64,000 nt of DNA, taken from contig QXJR01000026.1 of the NCBI GenBank assembly GCA_020975725.1, positions 248,001 to 312,000 on the forward strand, written 5' to 3'. Of the stretch, positions 51,726 through 62,042 are shown one piece after another. Position numbers and translations under genes: made by a program. Numbering within the stretch: position 1 is the first letter of the stretch; each line of letters starts with the position of its first letter. Under the pieces are notes generated by a model that ran no database searches, was not told where the DNA came from, and was given only the letters and a program-made list of their open reading frames with translations. Source of the stretch: Picocystis sp. L7 (taxonomy: Eukaryota > Chlorophyta > Picocystophyceae > Picocystales > Picocystaceae).

Positions 51726-53015
51726 TCACATGGAACGCATTGAATTCTGCAAGGTGGATTTTGCTTGGCCTGCAGCAGAATCAAGTGCCTGGACTTCTTC
51801 AGGAGACAAGCTGATAGATAGGGCCTTGATGTTATCCTGGCACTGTGCAAGTGTTCTTGCGCCTGGAATAGGAACTGTACCCTTTGCAATGCACCAACCC
51901 AATGCAATCTGAGGAAGGCCAACATCAGGTCCACGCTGGGATGCTATTTCTCGCATCAAAGGAAGCAAGCCAGCTGCTTCAGCCTCTGGAAGTAGCTGTC
52001 TTGCCAGGAAACCGCGTGGACCTTCTGGAAGCTTTCCACCATCCCCCACAGAATATTTCCCACTCAGGAGACCCAAGCATAGGGGCGAGTAAGCAATGAC
52101 AGTGACGCCCAGGTCTTGGCATACATCCAGAACTTCTCTTTGATAATCCTGATAGGAGAGCAGGGAGAACTGTACTTGAAGAGTTCCAATCGGTACACCT
52201 CTCGCGGAAAATTTCCTGTGTATACTCTGCAGTGATTTAGGTCCGTAGTTGCTGAGACCCACTGCTTTAATCAGTCCTTTCTCGTAAGCATCCGCTAACC
52301 CATCAAGCAAAGCATCTTCTTGAAACTGAAGCCCATATGCGGCAGGACTCCAATGCATTTGTCCAAGCTCAAGGGACCCACAAGTACGTCCTAGCCTGTC
52401 CACTGAACTTTTTATTGCCTTGACCATAGATTTTCTGGTCAGCCTCCATGGATACGCTGCAAGTTTGGTAGCCACACAGATAGCGTTTGGGCACTCGTCC
52501 CCGGTGATTCCACGTCTTCCTGAGAACTCTCCGAGAAGGATCTCTGCCCTTCCATTGAACTTGCCTGTTCCATAGGAATCTCCCGTATCAAACAAGTTGA
52601 CCCCATTGTCCAGGCAGCAGTTGAAGACCTTCTCCAGCTCGTCGTCTTGCTCCGGCGAGTAACCGAACAGCAAACGGTTCCCCCATGCCCACGTTCCCGC
52701 TCCCATTCGGGAAACGTACAGCGGATTTTCTTTCGTTCCGATGTTGATCCGTTCCTTCCCTTCCCCTTTCTTCGCCTTGGTCATCCCTGCGAGCCACGAA
52801 GGCCACGACAGGGAACCAAACTCGGCTCCGTTCCTCCTCCTTGGAACGGCACGGGTTTGGGTCGGTTCTCTGGACGTGTTAAGATCCCTCCCAGGCCTTC
52901 TGCATGTCTTTCCTGCGTTCTTCTTCCCCTTCGAGGCGAAGCGCGTGCGGACCACCATCCCTCCTGTCCGACACAAGTCCAAGACCTTCGAGAATAAACT
53001 CCCTTCAGGGGCCAT
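51726..53015 (-). CDS. Plastid-type aldo/keto reductase
   Basis: A 429-aa protein with a 70-90-residue basic N-terminal extension (MVVRTRFASKGKKNAGKTCR) that resembles a transit peptide. The AKR barrel follows: MGAGTWAWGNRLLFGYSPEQ, NLFDTGDSYGTGKFNGRAE (catalytic Asp and Tyr), ICVATKLAAYPWRLT (catalytic Lys), LGQMHWSPAAY (catalytic His), GLSNYGPKSLQ, and VPIPGARTLAQCQDNIKAL for NADPH phosphate binding. The tetrad is complete. It resembles the plant chloroplast/plastoglobule AKR group more than stress AKRs; substrate unknown. The frame is open upstream to 53138, but GTTAAC promoter motifs at 53041-53065 argue for the ATG at 53015. Confidence 0.9.
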   Translation of the reverse strand: MAPEGSLFSKVLDLCRTGGMVVRTRFASKGKKNAGKTCRRPGRDLNTSREPTQTRAVPRRRNGAEFGSLSWPSWLAGMTKAKKGEGKERINIGTKENPLYVSRMGAGTWAWGNRLLFGYSPEQDDELEKVFNCCLDNGVNLFDTGDSYGTGKFNGRAEILLGEFSGRRGITGDECPNAICVATKLAAYPWRLTRKSMVKAIKSSVDRLGRTCGSLELGQMHWSPAAYGLQFQEDALLDGLADAYEKGLIKAVGLSNYGPKSLQSIHRKFSARGVPIGTLQVQFSLLSYQDYQREVLDVCQDLGVTVIAYSPLCLGLLSGKYSVGDGGKLPEGPRGFLARQLLPEAEAAGLLPLMREIASQRGPDVGLPQIALGWCIAKGTVPIPGARTLAQCQDNIKALSISLSPEEVQALDSAAGQAKSTLQNSMRSM

Positions 53016-53040
53016 CGACTCGAGGGTCCCTCCCTTCCGA

Positions 53041-53070
53041 AGCGGGTTAACTTCAGAATTAACCGTGGGA
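53041..53070. promoter_or_regulatory. GGTTAACTT-AATTAACC element upstream of AKR
   Basis: GGGTTAACTTCAGAATTAACC is an imperfect inverted repeat centred about 40 nt upstream of the AKR start; it belongs to the GTTAAC motif group. A related GGTTAATCGCG is at 53200. Confidence 0.4.
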
Positions 53071-53456
53071 AGGTCAGGATCGCTTTCGGTTTCATTCGAG
53101 TCGGTTCGGCTGCGGTCGGTGGCGACTGGTTGGCGCACCGTCGACAGTTGGACGTGCGTCTTGGAAGACGGTGACGGATCCGATTTCAGCTTCGGTACCG
53201 GTTAATCGCGCGTTTCCGGCCTCGACGGTCCCGCGCCACCGTCCTTGTGGATCGAAGATGCGACCACCTCCCTCCCATCGGAGAGAAGAAACTCCTCGAG
53301 GGGAATCCTGTCCCTTGTCGTTCCCTGGATCCGAGGAGAAGGCCGTTTCTTCGGGTTCGAACCCGGGTGAGAAACCGGTCTAGCTTCCATTCGATCGGTC
53401 GGGATACCCGGGTGGGAAGCTGGATCGATGCGCATGCCTTTCGAGACCAGAAACGA

Positions 53457-56261
53457 ATGGACGCCACAATGGCGCGTTCCTCGTCGATCGAAAGGCGAGG
53501 CGATGGAGCGGAAGATGGCGTGGCCGCCCACGTGGTCCTTGGAGTGGGACGAGACGCATCCGAAGAGGAGGTGAAACGTGCCTATCGACTCCGCGCGAGC
53601 GAATGCCATCCCGACAAAGGAGGGTCGCCATGGGCGTTTCAAACCGTGCAGAAAGCGTACCAAGAACTGCTGGAATGCTTCGATGGAAACGATCCAGAAA
53701 TGGAGAAGAAGAACTTCAAGCAGAAAGGAATGGAAGCATTTCGAGCGAAACGGTTCGAAGAAGCTTGCCACTGGTTCGAACGGGCCGTCTCTGCCAAGGA
53801 AGGTGGAGAGTCGCAAGCAGCAGCACTGTACAGCAACCTGGCAGCCGCGAATTGTGCACGAAAAGATTACAAAGCCGCGCTTCGTGCATCCGAAAAATGC
53901 ATCAGGGAGAGACCGGAGTGGTTCAAGGGTTATTATCGGAGGGCAGAGGCTCTCGTGGGATTAAGAGAGTTCGAAAAAGCCGAAAGGGCGCTGCTCAGTG
54001 CTTTGGAGCTGAATCCAGAAGAATCCGGACTGCACGAGAAACTGAAGCAGGTGCAAGAACAATACTATGGAAGCGAAAGCGTAAGCAATACGAAAATTCT
54101 TGGAAACACCAGCACACAACCCAGTTGGAGCAAAAGTCAGAACCCAGAGGAACTCACCCAGGAACTTCAAGATTTGTTGAATGCCATCAGGGCCATCGAG
54201 GTAGCATCGGACAATGAACTGAAACATCTGCTAGAATCCTTTCCAGGAAAAAGTGTGAATGAAATACAAGCCACACTGCGGGCGAAGGCGGAAGAAAAGA
54301 GGACCTTGCTGGCATACCATGGCTCGCCACAGCTTGCCCAACAACACTTGGACACTGCTGAACCTGCCCATGCCCACCCAGCAGAAGCCGTTGGTAGTGC
54401 ATTGAGGCAAGAAAGCAACAGCAGCAGCCTGCCATCCTACAAGAAAATTCGCTGCAAAGTGTGTGGAAACGTAGTCCATCGCCATATGAAAGTATGCACA
54501 TCATGTTGTTTGCCCTTGACAGATCCTAAGTTTTTTGAGCCGTGTTTTGATGTGCCTGTGGCAGGTGGAGAAGTTCCGGCCTATCAGCAATCGAAGCCCA
54601 GGGAAATTGCAGCCCGTTCTGGGCAAGATGCTCTTGGTCCAAATCTTTCGAAATTGCATCGGGAGGATTGTGAGCCCCCCAGACCTCGCGGAAAAGTCGA
54701 AAGCGAGAAAAAAGGTTCAGCATTGTCCAAATTGCGCAAGAGCAGGACACATGGAGTGAGGAAGTCATCAGCTGCATTTGTAGGCACGGGCAATGAGGAT
54801 GAAACGGTAACCTCTGCATATGCTCGATTGGGAGTACCTCCAGCGACAGGACAGGCGGCCCTTCGCAAGCGTTACTTTGAACTGATGATGGAGGAGCACC
54901 CAGACCAGGGGGGTGAAGCAGAAGATTATGCTTCACTTTGTAAGGCCTACGACAGCATAGTACATGCAAAGATAGTGGAATCGCAAAAAGTCAACCAGCA
55001 GGATACGACAGCAGGGGGTAGCGTTAAGGAGCAACCGAATGCCAAAGCGAGGATATTTGTCAGCATGGTTTGCTATCGCGACCCAGAAGGCATTAGAACC
55101 ATAGAGAATCTTTTGCGGATGGCAAGCCACAGAGAGAGAGTGACAGTGGGTGTCCTCTGGCAGTATGCCAACCATGAGTTTTCAGAAGTCACAAGATACT
55201 TTACGGAAGTGAATGCTCTCACAGCAGAGGTTGAGAAGCATGCTGCAGCAATAGCAGATGATTCAGATCGGCAAAAGTATCTGGAAGATTGTTTACCTCA
55301 GCAACTGAAGCTACAGCAAAAGGAACAGGCAAACGAGATTGCTTCGCACACACGGAAGTCTCTACCAGATAGTTTGCAGCCACATGTACGAGATATGCAC
55401 ATGAACTTCTTGGAAACCGATGGAAGGGCATATGCGCATCATCTTGTTGAGCAACTCTGGGGTGGAGAGGAATATATTTTTCAGATTGACTCACGTTTAA
55501 GATTCGTTGAGGGCTGGGATGTCCTCTTAGTGAATGAGTACAGTTGTTGTCCGTCTGAGAGATCTATACTGACTACGGCATGCCTGTTTGATGAGTCAGC
55601 AGAAGAATTCAACACTCCAGCGAAAGGGCCAACCGACAACCGCCCTCCCGTCATCACTGCTATGGGCTTCTCAAGATACGGGGTTCCCATATTCGGTGGG
55701 CAACGGCTCAAAAAAGTTCCCGAACATCCTGTGCCAACCTTTTTCTGGAACCCATTCTTTTCCTTCAGCAAGGCAGAAGCTCTCATGGTGGATGTTCGCT
55801 ATGATCCTCACATGGCCCATTTGGACCATGGCGAAGACGTCGCAATGGCAGTGCGCTTTTACACACATGGTTGGGACTGCTTCTGCCCACGCATAAACGT
55901 CTGCTTCTCTTCAAGCTCTACGTCTTTTAGAAAAACTGCATGGGATGAAGATCATCGTTCTGGGTACCGTCTCTATGCTGAACCATACGAATCGGCTGGC
56001 ACCGAGCAAGAACAGGTCTTGAAGTCTTTCCAACGCTTGTCTTCTCGTAGGCGTGTCCTACAGCTGCTGGGTGCACCCGATTCGGACGCATTGCCAGTGG
56101 ATATTGGCATCCATGGCCTGGGAACATCCCGCTCCTTGGACGCCTTCCTCTCGGGCAGCGGGATCGACTGCATCACTGGTCAGTTGCTTCCACGTGCACG
56201 TTGCGGTGGCCGTGAAGCACAGGAACTGGCTTTTGGACCACCGAGCACAAATCGAAGATGA
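53457..56261 (+). CDS. DnaJ-TPR-zinc ribbon-DnaJ-GlcNAc-transferase (GT60-like) fusion
   Basis: A 934-aa single-exon protein. J domain 1 (about 22-75) has HPD at 51-53 in RLRASECHPDKGG. TPRs span about 85-205: FKQKGMEAFRAKRFEEACHW, ALYSNLAAANCARKDYKAAL and GYYRRAEALVGLREFEKAER. A Cx2C-x10-Cx2C zinc ribbon follows at 333-350 (CKVCGNVVHRHMKVCTSC). J domain 2 (about 452-505) has HPD at 481-483 in MMEEHPDQGG. From about 531 to the end is a GlcNAc-type glycosyltransferase (PF11397): ARIFVSMVCYRDPEGIRTIE, VGVLWQYANHEF, FLETDGRAYAHHLVEQLWGG and FQIDSRLRFVEGWD (metal-binding Asp). In Dictyostelium this family modifies hydroxyproline on Skp1 in the cytosol. No signal peptide is visible, so a chaperone-linked cytosolic transferase is inferred. 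Confidence 0.9.
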   Translation: MDATMARSSSIERRGDGAEDGVAAHVVLGVGRDASEEEVKRAYRLRASECHPDKGGSPWAFQTVQKAYQELLECFDGNDPEMEKKNFKQKGMEAFRAKRFEEACHWFERAVSAKEGGESQAAALYSNLAAANCARKDYKAALRASEKCIRERPEWFKGYYRRAEALVGLREFEKAERALLSALELNPEESGLHEKLKQVQEQYYGSESVSNTKILGNTSTQPSWSKSQNPEELTQELQDLLNAIRAIEVASDNELKHLLESFPGKSVNEIQATLRAKAEEKRTLLAYHGSPQLAQQHLDTAEPAHAHPAEAVGSALRQESNSSSLPSYKKIRCKVCGNVVHRHMKVCTSCCLPLTDPKFFEPCFDVPVAGGEVPAYQQSKPREIAARSGQDALGPNLSKLHREDCEPPRPRGKVESEKKGSALSKLRKSRTHGVRKSSAAFVGTGNEDETVTSAYARLGVPPATGQAALRKRYFELMMEEHPDQGGEAEDYASLCKAYDSIVHAKIVESQKVNQQDTTAGGSVKEQPNAKARIFVSMVCYRDPEGIRTIENLLRMASHRERVTVGVLWQYANHEFSEVTRYFTEVNALTAEVEKHAAAIADDSDRQKYLEDCLPQQLKLQQKEQANEIASHTRKSLPDSLQPHVRDMHMNFLETDGRAYAHHLVEQLWGGEEYIFQIDSRLRFVEGWDVLLVNEYSCCPSERSILTTACLFDESAEEFNTPAKGPTDNRPPVITAMGFSRYGVPIFGGQRLKKVPEHPVPTFFWNPFFSFSKAEALMVDVRYDPHMAHLDHGEDVAMAVRFYTHGWDCFCPRINVCFSSSSTSFRKTAWDEDHRSGYRLYAEPYESAGTEQEQVLKSFQRLSSRRRVLQLLGAPDSDALPVDIGIHGLGTSRSLDAFLSGSGIDCITGQLLPRARCGGREAQELAFGPPSTNRR

Positions 56262-57538: not shown

Positions 57539-58800
57539 TTATGAACCAGCTTCATCTCCAAGGCTTGCCAATGGTTGGTGTTTACATTCCATGTTAATGG
57601 GGCATTCATCCTCAGCACTGACAAGTTCAAGCATACCCCTGATATGTTTTCCTTCAAACTCAAGCAGCACATCGCTTACTGCGCGCGCTGCAGAAAGAGC
57701 CTCTTCAAATAAGGATTGAAGATAGTGGACCTGCTTGACAGGACTCGTTGAAGGCTTCTTGTCACAACACATGCTTTCATAAAGATCAGTGATGTAACCA
57801 CATAGCAAAGCATATTCTGACACTTGTCCACAGCTCCGCTGCTCCCCTTCGAGTGACTTATGATCTTGGCCACCAGGAATATCACGAGTATGCACTTGAG
57901 TCACTGCATCTTGGATTGCTGCTTGGGCGTAGGAGATTTCTGCCCTCAAAAAGATAGCCAGGTCGTTGTGCCATGAGCTTGAATGTTGGCCCAATCTCAA
58001 AGCAAATTCAGGATCTTGCGCATACGACAAAATTCTTGCTTCAAGTACCTTGAATACGTCCAAAACGCCATGGGTATCCAGTGTCCTGCTTGGTGGACAC
58101 CCCTGACTGAACTCATTCATTACCAAGTGCCTGTACATTTCCATGTCTTGCACGACTTGTGCTAAGCCTGGCAAGTCTTTCGTCTCCAGCTTGAGGAGCT
58201 GGACATCGACTTTCAATTCTGCAGCACTTTTAAGTGTGCTGTTGACTTTATGAAGGATGCCCGAAGTTGCCTCTTGTTCCGCTTGCAATTTATGCTTGAC
58301 CCGGGAAAGTTTTTCCCTACGCAAAGCAATGAAATTCTCAAAGCACTCTACATCTTCGTCAAGCATGGCCTCACTCTTGCGCAGAGCTTCCTTTCGGTGT
58401 GCCGATCGATCCTGAAGCTTTTTGATCTCTGACTGCTTTGAATTGAGAGTCATTTGAAGCTTAAAAATTTCTTTCTTCTTCTCGAGATATTCGTTGATTG
58501 TCTGCTTGTCCAGCTGGTATTGCGTGTTGCCTAGGGTCGCTAGCTTAGCCAACGTCTTCCCGCTTGTTAAAAGCAGACTTTCTTGCTCGGCTACCTTTGT
58601 TTCGTTGGTTCGAAAGCGGTTCGCTCCGTTCCCGAGGGATTGCAAACGGCACTCTTGGGCCTGTTAAGCCCCAGCATGTCAACGAAAAGTCCGTTTCGAT
58701 GTTTTCGAATCCGCATGTCGCGGCTTACATTGTTCCTCCGCCTTCGAACGCGGTCAATCTCGGTCAGGAAGGACTCTGAGAGCTCCAGGTCGTGGTCCAT
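57539..58800 (-). CDS. CFAP100-like ciliary protein (DUF4200), two exons
   Basis: I read exon 1 at 58800-58729 (24 codons, MDHDLELSESFLTEIDRVRR start) and exon 2 at 58660-57539, with a 68-nt intron GTAAGC to CTTAACAG in phase 0; 397 aa. The DUF4200 coiled coil matches CFAP100/MIA1: YLEKKKEIFKLQMTLNSKQS, HRKEALRKSEAMLDEDVECF and ENFIALRREKLSRVKHKLQ. CFAP100 and CFAP73 form the modifier of inner arms (MIA) complex that tunes I1 dynein in axonemes. The C-terminal 200 residues are helical and not obviously conserved. If right, the organism makes a motile cilium. CFAP73/CCDC42 are related alternatives. Confidence 0.78.
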
Positions 58801-60413: not shown

Positions 60414-62042
60414 ATGAGGGGCATGCTTCGGACCTGGGAGAGGCGCTGTCCACCTACACGGACACATGGGAGCCCGAGAAAGTATTCGAGAAGGAAGAAA
60501 AACGAAGGACGGATCCGGAAGGACGGCCAACACGCCGCTACCAACTCCAACATCTCCGTGGACCTCAACGGCGGACTCGACCCGTTGCACTTCGCAAGGT
60601 CCTTCCGACAAGCGTATCCTTACATCGAAAAGCACAGAAACAGCACGTTCGTCTTCGTGCTTCCAGGAGATGTGAACTCTGACGAACAAGTGCTCGATGG
60701 AATCCTGCAAGACGTTGCCATCCTTCACGGACTGGGAGTGCGCATCGTCCTCGCTGTAGGCATCGGACAACAGGTCGACGAGCTGCTGGCCTTGAGAGGA
60801 AAGCAGTCCGTCTTCCTGGATGGATACCGAGTGACGGATGCAGCTGCGATGAGAGGAGTCATGGAGGCTTCGGGTGCTGTCCGGGTGGACATAGAAGCTC
60901 GTCTCTCGGTGATCCCCACGGTTGCAGCAGTCAGGAGACACGGTGGTAACCGCGAGTTCCTGGAACCAGCAGTCAAAGTGGTGAGCGGAAACTACATCCG
61001 AGCCAAAAGAAGGGGGGTTGTCAATGGGGTCGATTTTTCATACGCTGGAGAAGTGCGTGGTATCGATGTGGAGGCGATCCGCTCCCAGCTTGGACGTGGA
61101 TGCATTGTACTGCTGTCGAACATTGGATACACGGCTACAGGTGAGGTTCTGAACTGCAATACATACGAAGTTGCCACCCAGACAGCGCAAGTACTTCAGG
61201 CACAAAAGCTTATTTGCTTTACCAACGGGGAGGAGCTCTTCAATCGGCTCAACTTGCCCGCTTGGCTGACGCTCAAGGACGCACAAGCCTTGATCGGTCA
61301 GATTATGCTGGAGGGATCCCCTGAAGCCAACAATGAGAGCACAGCATCAGATGATGGCATCTGCACAAATGATAGTACATGTCACTGGCAAGTGCAAAAC
61401 TGCCCTTTGGAGCTGACTGCTTGTGTGTCGGCCTGCTGTGATGGCGTGGCAAGGTCACACATCCTGGATGGGAGAATCGAGGGCATTCTACTTCAAGAAA
61501 TGTTCACCAGAGATGGAGTTGGATGCATGATATCTGCAGATATATACGAAGGAACACGCAAAGCATCTCCTGAAGATGTGCCGGCGATTGAAAAGCTCCT
61601 CCTGCCTCTTGTGGAGAACGGAACTCTACTCCGCAGGTCCAGGGAGCGCTTGCTGTCTGAGTTGCAGTATTTTACGGTAGTAGAACGAGATTTCAAGATT
61701 GTAGCATGTGCAGCCTTGATTCCTTGGGGAGGGGACACTGCAGAGGTTGCGGCCTTTGTAGTAAGCGCAGAATATAGACGGGAGGGGCGCGGTGATGTCT
61801 TGCTGGACTATGTCGAACAATCGGCAAGGGCCATGGGAATACGCAAGCTGTTCTTGTTGACCACCAGGACAGCTGACTGGTTCGAGATGCGTGGCTTCAA
61901 AGCGGCCGGCTACGCACACTTCAGTGAAGAAATCCCTCAAGAGCGCACGAAAAATGTGGACCCTCTGCGCAATAGCCAACTCTACATAAAACGCTTGGAA
62001 GAGGCCACGAGAAGCAGGCCTGGTTCCCGAATTGGCTTCTAA
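60414..62042 (+). CDS. NAGS: N-acetylglutamate synthase, plant/bacterial type
   Basis: A 542-aa protein. The first 45 residues are Arg/Lys-rich and contain few acids, consistent with a plastid (or mitochondrial) transit peptide. An amino-acid-kinase-like domain follows: FARSFRQAYPYIEKHRNSTF, VRIVLAVGIGQQVDELLA, DGYRVTDAAAMRGVMEASGA and FSYAGEVRGIDVEAIRSQL. The C-terminal GNAT domain has AALIPWGGDTAEVAAFVVSA, YRREGRGDVLLDYVEQSARA (acetyl-CoA loop) and LFLLTTRTADWFEMRGF. The ArgA-like order AAK-GNAT makes it the first enzyme of arginine synthesis, acetylating glutamate, usually inhibited by arginine. A Cys-rich insertion lies between the two domains (about residues 300-345). Confidence 0.95.
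   Translation: MRGMLRTWERRCPPTRTHGSPRKYSRRKKNEGRIRKDGQHAATNSNISVDLNGGLDPLHFARSFRQAYPYIEKHRNSTFVFVLPGDVNSDEQVLDGILQDVAILHGLGVRIVLAVGIGQQVDELLALRGKQSVFLDGYRVTDAAAMRGVMEASGAVRVDIEARLSVIPTVAAVRRHGGNREFLEPAVKVVSGNYIRAKRRGVVNGVDFSYAGEVRGIDVEAIRSQLGRGCIVLLSNIGYTATGEVLNCNTYEVATQTAQVLQAQKLICFTNGEELFNRLNLPAWLTLKDAQALIGQIMLEGSPEANNESTASDDGICTNDSTCHWQVQNCPLELTACVSACCDGVARSHILDGRIEGILLQEMFTRDGVGCMISADIYEGTRKASPEDVPAIEKLLLPLVENGTLLRRSRERLLSELQYFTVVERDFKIVACAALIPWGGDTAEVAAFVVSAEYRREGRGDVLLDYVEQSARAMGIRKLFLLTTRTADWFEMRGFKAAGYAHFSEEIPQERTKNVDPLRNSQLYIKRLEEATRSRPGSRIGF

What the first reader, a model, noticed from the sequence alone, without database searches (positions are those of the whole stretch)
53457..56261. 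J domain, TPR, zinc ribbon, second J domain and GT60-like GlcNAc transferase in one protein
Seen: two HPD-bearing J domains (HPD at residues 51-53 and 481-483), TPR units, a four-Cys ribbon, then a PF11397-like transferase with QIDS metal site, all in one uninterrupted frame. Known: GT60 enzymes O-glycosylate hydroxyproline of Skp1 in the cytosol; J domains recruit Hsp70; TPRs can bind chaperone tails. Inference: a transferase delivered to nascent or misfolded clients by Hsp70, or a cochaperone whose activity is tuned by sugar nucleotide. I know no characterised protein with two J domains flanking a TPR-ribbon unit and a transferase.
Basis: partly seen in the sequence, partly recalled or inferred. 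Interest (0 to 1): 0.85.

Follow-up and report, generated by a model that had tools for sequence, protein, structure and literature searches.

The report
Chaperone helper carrying a dead glycosyltransferase
A gene of a small alga encodes one long protein that joins two Hsp70-recruiting J domains and a likely Hsp70/Hsp90-tail-binding domain to a sugar-transferase domain that has lost its expected metal-binding residues, so it looks like a chaperone helper that reuses a dead enzyme as a binding part.

The parts
53457..56261 (+). whole coding frame, 934 residues and stop
   Evidence: open frame; same order end to end in four other proteins
53526..53681 (+). J domain 1, residues 24-75, HPD at 51-53
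   Evidence: PF00226 over its cut-off; 85-88% identical in the sister proteins
53703..54056 (+). TPR domain, residues 83-200, HOP-like, with K88, N127, K157 and R161 at carboxylate-clamp positions and M92 where HOP has Asn
   Evidence: STIP1 E 1.3e-18 and alignment; residues in five sequences; HOP clamp positions recalled
54144..54317 (+). predicted helical linker segment, residues 230-287
   Evidence: blocks with pLDDT about 68-83 in an otherwise poor full-length model; no Pfam match over a cut-off
54441..54554 (+). CxxC...CxxC putative zinc ribbon, residues 329-366
   Evidence: Cys 333, 336, 347, 350 in 5 of 5; best profiles E 0.032 and 0.16, under their cut-offs
54810..54974 (+). J domain 2, residues 452-506, HPD at 481-483
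   Evidence: 27.4 bits, cut-off 27.8; DNAJA1 E 7e-5; HPD in 5 of 5
55044..56171 (+). GT60-derived (PF11397) domain, residues 530-905
55173..55406 (+). long insert in the GT domain, residues 573-650, largely missing from the relatives aligned; two predicted long helices
   Evidence: gaps in the three distant rows; column 572 a gap in 296 of 301 rows; helices
55437..55439 (+). His661 where relatives have Arg
   Evidence: Arg in 299 of 301 rows; His in 5 of 5 family members
55488..55496 (+). Asp678-Ser679-Arg680, the altered D-x-H metal motif
   Evidence: His at 680 in 301 of 301 rows; Arg in 5 of 5
55908..55910 (+). Ser818 at the C-terminal metal-His position
   Evidence: His in 295 of 301 rows; Ser in 5 of 5

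Best explanation
It is a lineage-restricted co-chaperone of the cytosolic Hsp70/Hsp90 machinery. Its TPR clamp holds the EEVD tail of Hsp70 or Hsp90, its J domains trigger Hsp70 ATP hydrolysis through HPD, and a GT60-derived domain that has lost its catalytic metal ligands serves as a docking module, for a client protein or possibly a sugar nucleotide or glycan. Shown here: domain order, conservation, loss of the expected metal ligands, predicted fold, clamp residues, and the presence of EEVD-tailed partners in the genome. Inferred: loss of transfer activity, binding to Hsp70/Hsp90, and docking as the role. The client is not known.
For: Same architecture in five proteins. Metal-site changes R680, S818 and H661 in 5 of 5, against His 301/301, His 295/301 and Arg 299/301 in relatives. 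The domain is nonetheless conserved at 76-78% while linker 3 is at 35-39%, and its predicted GT-A fold is intact. The family sits on a stem of 1.71 changes per column, median end branch 0.48, as expected after a change of function. The TPRs match HOP with four of five clamp residues; host Hsp70 L174 and Hsp90 L179 end in EEVD. COSMC is a described GT that lost its catalytic motifs and became a chaperone (PMC7185993, passage).
Against: No activity or binding was measured. PMC7185993 (passages) reports GT families that lost the C-His and use a water instead, and families that work without metal, so loss of ligands is not proof of a dead enzyme. D678, W687, D688, E793 and R800 are kept. Rare relatives also lack the C-His (6 of 301). 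No active GT60 partner exists in the genome for a COSMC-like role. One clamp residue is missing and J2 is just under the Pfam cut-off.
Confidence: 0.58

Rival explanations
1. The GT domain is still an enzyme that works without metal: R680 (and H661) take the place of the cation and hold the diphosphate, and the J and TPR parts bring Hsp70 or Hsp90 clients as acceptors.
For: The domain is well conserved with D678, W687, D688 and R800 kept. GT14 uses basic side chains instead of the metal, and some GT6 enzymes lost DxD (PMC7185993, passages).
Against: No metal-independent GT60 or GT27 is known to me (recalled). Three near-invariant residues changed together and W659 became Tyr. The long stem branch fits a change of function, though not only a loss of catalysis.
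Confidence: 0.2
2. The GT domain is a sensor: it binds a UDP-sugar without transferring it and so tunes the co-chaperone.
For: Nucleotide-sugar fold intact; several conserved pocket residues kept.
Against: The metal ligands that hold the diphosphate and the Arg of the GxCWAR motif are lost, which should weaken donor binding.
Confidence: 0.12
3. One reading: an active Skp1-type, metal-using GlcNAc transferase delivered to clients by Hsp70.
For: PF11397 match; a Skp1 gene with the proline stretch TPEEEE and 12 2OG-oxygenase matches in the genome.
Against: Metal ligands lost in 5 of 5. It is the only PF11397 match in the genome. Neither Skp1 nor the oxygenases show that the pathway is present.
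Confidence: 0.06
4. Two neighbouring genes wrongly read as one, or an assembly chimaera.
For: The linker before the GT domain, 507-529, is the least conserved part (35-39%). No RNA evidence was available.
Against: Four other proteins on other contigs have the same frame end to end.
Confidence: 0.03

Closest known systems
Skp1 GnT1 and other CAZy GT60 enzymes (PF11397)
   Same: PF11397 profile match; predicted GT27-like fold
   Different: DxH reads DSR, C-terminal His reads Ser, GxCWAR Arg reads His; fused to J, TPR and ribbon; a helical insert of about 78 residues
GT27 polypeptide GalNAc-transferases
   Different: about 11% identity; no DxH or C-His (the latter two described for a GT27 enzyme in PMC6994419, passages)
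COSMC (C1GALT1C1, GT31 pseudo-enzyme chaperone)
   Same: a GT fold without catalytic motifs linked to chaperoning (PMC7185993, passage)
   Different: another GT family, no J or TPR domain (recalled); COSMC serves an active relative, which is not present here
TPR-J co-chaperones DNAJC7 and DNAJC3 (recalled)
   Same: TPRs plus a J domain in one protein
   Different: there the J domain follows the TPRs (recalled); here one J precedes them, a second follows, and a GT domain is attached
HOP/STIP1
   Same: closest TPR match, E 1.3e-18, four of five clamp residues
   Different: HOP has no J domain (recalled)

Membership tests
GT60 active glycosyltransferase | PF11397 sequence profile | tested here: met
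   187.7 bits, cut-off 21
GT60 active glycosyltransferase | GT-A fold related to GT27 | tested here: met
GT60 active glycosyltransferase | DxH metal motif | tested here: not met
   DSR in 5 of 5; His in 301 of 301 relatives
GT60 active glycosyltransferase | C-terminal metal His | tested here: not met
   Ser in 5 of 5; His in 295 of 301; placed by sequence alignment
GT60 active glycosyltransferase | transfer of a sugar from a UDP-sugar | not testable with these tools
   needs an enzyme assay
Skp1 GnT1 orthologue | groups with eukaryotic Gnt1 in a tree | not tested
   no identified eukaryotic GT60 was available; tree has bacterial, viral and unnamed rows
J-domain co-chaperone | J fold with HPD | tested here: met
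   J1 over the Pfam cut-off, HPD 5 of 5; J2 27.4 bits against 27.8 but DNAJA1 E 7e-5
J-domain co-chaperone | stimulates Hsp70 ATPase | not testable with these tools
   needs an assay
EEVD-binding TPR co-chaperone | five clamp residues of HOP TPR1 (recalled) | tested here: inconclusive
   four of five kept; Asn12 position is Met or Leu
zinc ribbon | two CxxC knuckles and a profile match | tested here: inconclusive
   cysteines 5 of 5; no profile over its cut-off

The most novel reading that the evidence does not exclude
A dead protein-glycosyltransferase has become the client receptor of a dedicated co-chaperone. If its GT60-derived part still recognises the old kind of acceptor, it would be a hydroxyproline- or Skp1-directed J protein that steers Hsp70/Hsp90 to SCF ligase parts without glycosylating them, much as SGT1 (recalled) links Skp1 to Hsp90 by other domains.
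Probability: 0.08. Interest if true: 0.85.

Novelty: new variant of a known kind. Interest (0 to 1): 0.62.

Why it matters
J proteins get their client range largely from the parts fused to the J domain. A dead glycosyltransferase as such a part was not found in the literature searched. It would be a built-in version of the COSMC idea, and a testable case of an enzyme fold turned into a binding module: one long branch with metal ligands lost, then strong conservation.

Tried and rejected
Full-length structure prediction from five sequences failed (mean pLDDT 39.2); only the GT model was used. Ribbon, linker, GT-insert and tail segments gave no Pfam match over a cut-off, and J2 alone fell just short; a CUE-like reading of the linker, considered by eye, got no support. 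Sequence profiles did not reach solved GT27 structures (in one search the hits came from the J-TPR part of the full-length rows). NCBIfam gave only J and TPR models, all below their cut-offs. My first guess at the host, a red alga (Porphyridium), was dropped: no match to phycobiliproteins or phycobilisome linkers, but 18 chlorophyll-binding matches and an Hsp70 with a plastid-type tail (L172; motif recalled) suggest a green alga. PMC3797821 (passage) says that GT60 contains only prasinophyte sequences among its algae. The host is not identified. The RNA fold at the start codon is unremarkable, z -1.16. An assembly chimaera was judged unlikely.

Limits. One search scored only the 7997 candidates sharing most words. 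One search found 1321 relatives but listed 120; one search kept 80 of 142 and 80 of 569 candidate loci. P0006 and P0007 (J or J/TPR proteins) and loci L001-L010 (own genome) were dropped before the audit. The 301 rows (122 from proteins, 179 from loci) include near copies; clustered sets hold 258, 147 and 39 rows. Exceptions: 818 is not His in 6 of 301, 661 is not Arg in 2 of 301 (one Lys, one gap). The fetch patterns cover D678 and other kept residues, not 661, 680 or 818. The alignment profile contained two family members. In one search the longest-frame rule gave no Hsp70 tail for L171; L176 and L178 are one gene; the other listed Hsp70/Hsp90-like tails do not end in EEVD except L174 and L179. 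The match behind L174 holds one TAG and has a separate first piece upstream, which I read as an intron. The hydropathy check covered P0001 and P0003 only.

Full report
What is there. The frame 53457-56261 (+) encodes 934 residues without a stop. Pfam finds DnaJ (two stretches), TPR repeats and PF11397 at 533-904 with E 5.3e-55. J2 is weaker: 27.4 bits alone against a cut-off of 27.8, but E 7e-5 against a solved DNAJA1 J domain. The cysteine motif is kept in 5 of 5 but matches no zinc-ribbon profile over its cut-off.

It is one gene, as far as sequence can tell. A protein search gave four full-length relatives, P0002 (99%) and P0003-P0005 (73-74%), on other contigs and with the same Pfam domains. 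The remaining two of the six hits, P0006 and P0007, are J/TPR and J proteins without PF11397. The search scored only the candidates that share most words, so absence elsewhere is not proved. The host genome holds one copy of the gene and one PF11397 match. No RNA evidence was available.

The transferase lacks its expected metal ligands. PMC7185993 (passages) states that GT27 and GT60 replaced DxD by DxH, and that a C-terminal His binds the metal in a subset of GTs such as GT27. PMC6994419 (passages) describes DXH and a conserved His for manganese in a GalNAc transferase. I aligned 301 relative domain rows (122 from proteins, 179 from bacterial and viral loci). The DxH His is present in 301 of 301, the C-terminal His in 295 of 301, and the Arg of the G-x-C-W-A-R motif in 299 of 301. 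In 147 clusters at 70% identity the counts are 147, 144 and 146; in 39 clusters at 50% they are 39, 38 and 38. The five J-GT proteins have Arg, Ser and His in 5 of 5. That S818 takes the C-His place rests on the sequence alignment; the structure aligner gave ranges only.

The co-chaperone side. The TPR domain is closest to STIP1/HOP (E 1.3e-18). Read from that alignment, with HOP's clamp residues recalled, K88, N127, K157 and R161 match, and the N12 position is Met or Leu. The host has an Hsp70 ending in EEVD (L174) and an Hsp90 ending in MEEVD (L179). No strongly hydrophobic segment was seen in P0001 or P0003 (best 19-residue means 0.92 and 1.02), so a soluble protein is likely.

Mechanism. 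I take the protein as an Hsp70/Hsp90 co-chaperone whose GT60-derived domain is a docking module. Recruitment of Hsp70 by J1 and contact of the TPRs with EEVD tails are inferred from conserved motifs. Loss of transfer is a strong inference from the lost ligands, but the same paper notes that GT families can lose the C-His or work without metal. Docking of a client is a proposal. COSMC, a GT31 protein that lost its catalytic motifs and acts as a chaperone (PMC7185993, passage), is the nearest functional parallel; unlike COSMC, this protein has no active PF11397 relative in its genome. The main rival is a metal-independent enzyme with R680 in place of the cation.

Skp1. The single Skp1 match (L002) keeps the TPEEEE stretch with the proline, and there are 12 2OG-oxygenase matches. 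Neither decides whether the Skp1 pathway exists here. If this is the only GT60 and it is dead, that pathway is probably absent.

Literature. Searches on DnaJ, glycosyltransferase, tetratricopeptide and Porphyridium; J domain, glycosyltransferase domain, pseudoenzyme and Hsp70; J-domain protein with glycosyltransferase, tetratricopeptide, domain architecture and alga returned no paper. GT60 with DnaJ returned one, on cisplatin, judged unrelated from its listing. A search on pseudo- or inactive glycosyltransferase, GT27 and GT60 returned three, none on such a protein by their listings and the passages read. The library holds open-licence papers only. PMC3797821 (passage), PMC6939170 (passages) and PMC9472816 (passages) describe GT60 in algae, Toxoplasma and trypanosomes.

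Noticed in passing
window 60414-62039 (+): 542-residue frame with an amino-acid-kinase domain and a GNAT acetyltransferase domain, the layout of N-acetylglutamate synthase (recalled).
   Followed up: no
window 51726-53138 (-) and 57542-58645 (-): Neighbouring frames: an aldo/keto reductase and a DUF4200 coiled-coil-like protein.
   Followed up: no
L029, L055 and P0008: Tandem PF11397-like domains in one frame: three rows in L029, two in L055 (Rickettsiales MAGs) and two in P0008.
   Followed up: no
L044 and L053 (bacterial MAGs): PF11397-like domains with Thr at the C-terminal His position and GPMLAR in place of GxCWAR, DxH His kept.
   Followed up: no
   Followed up: no
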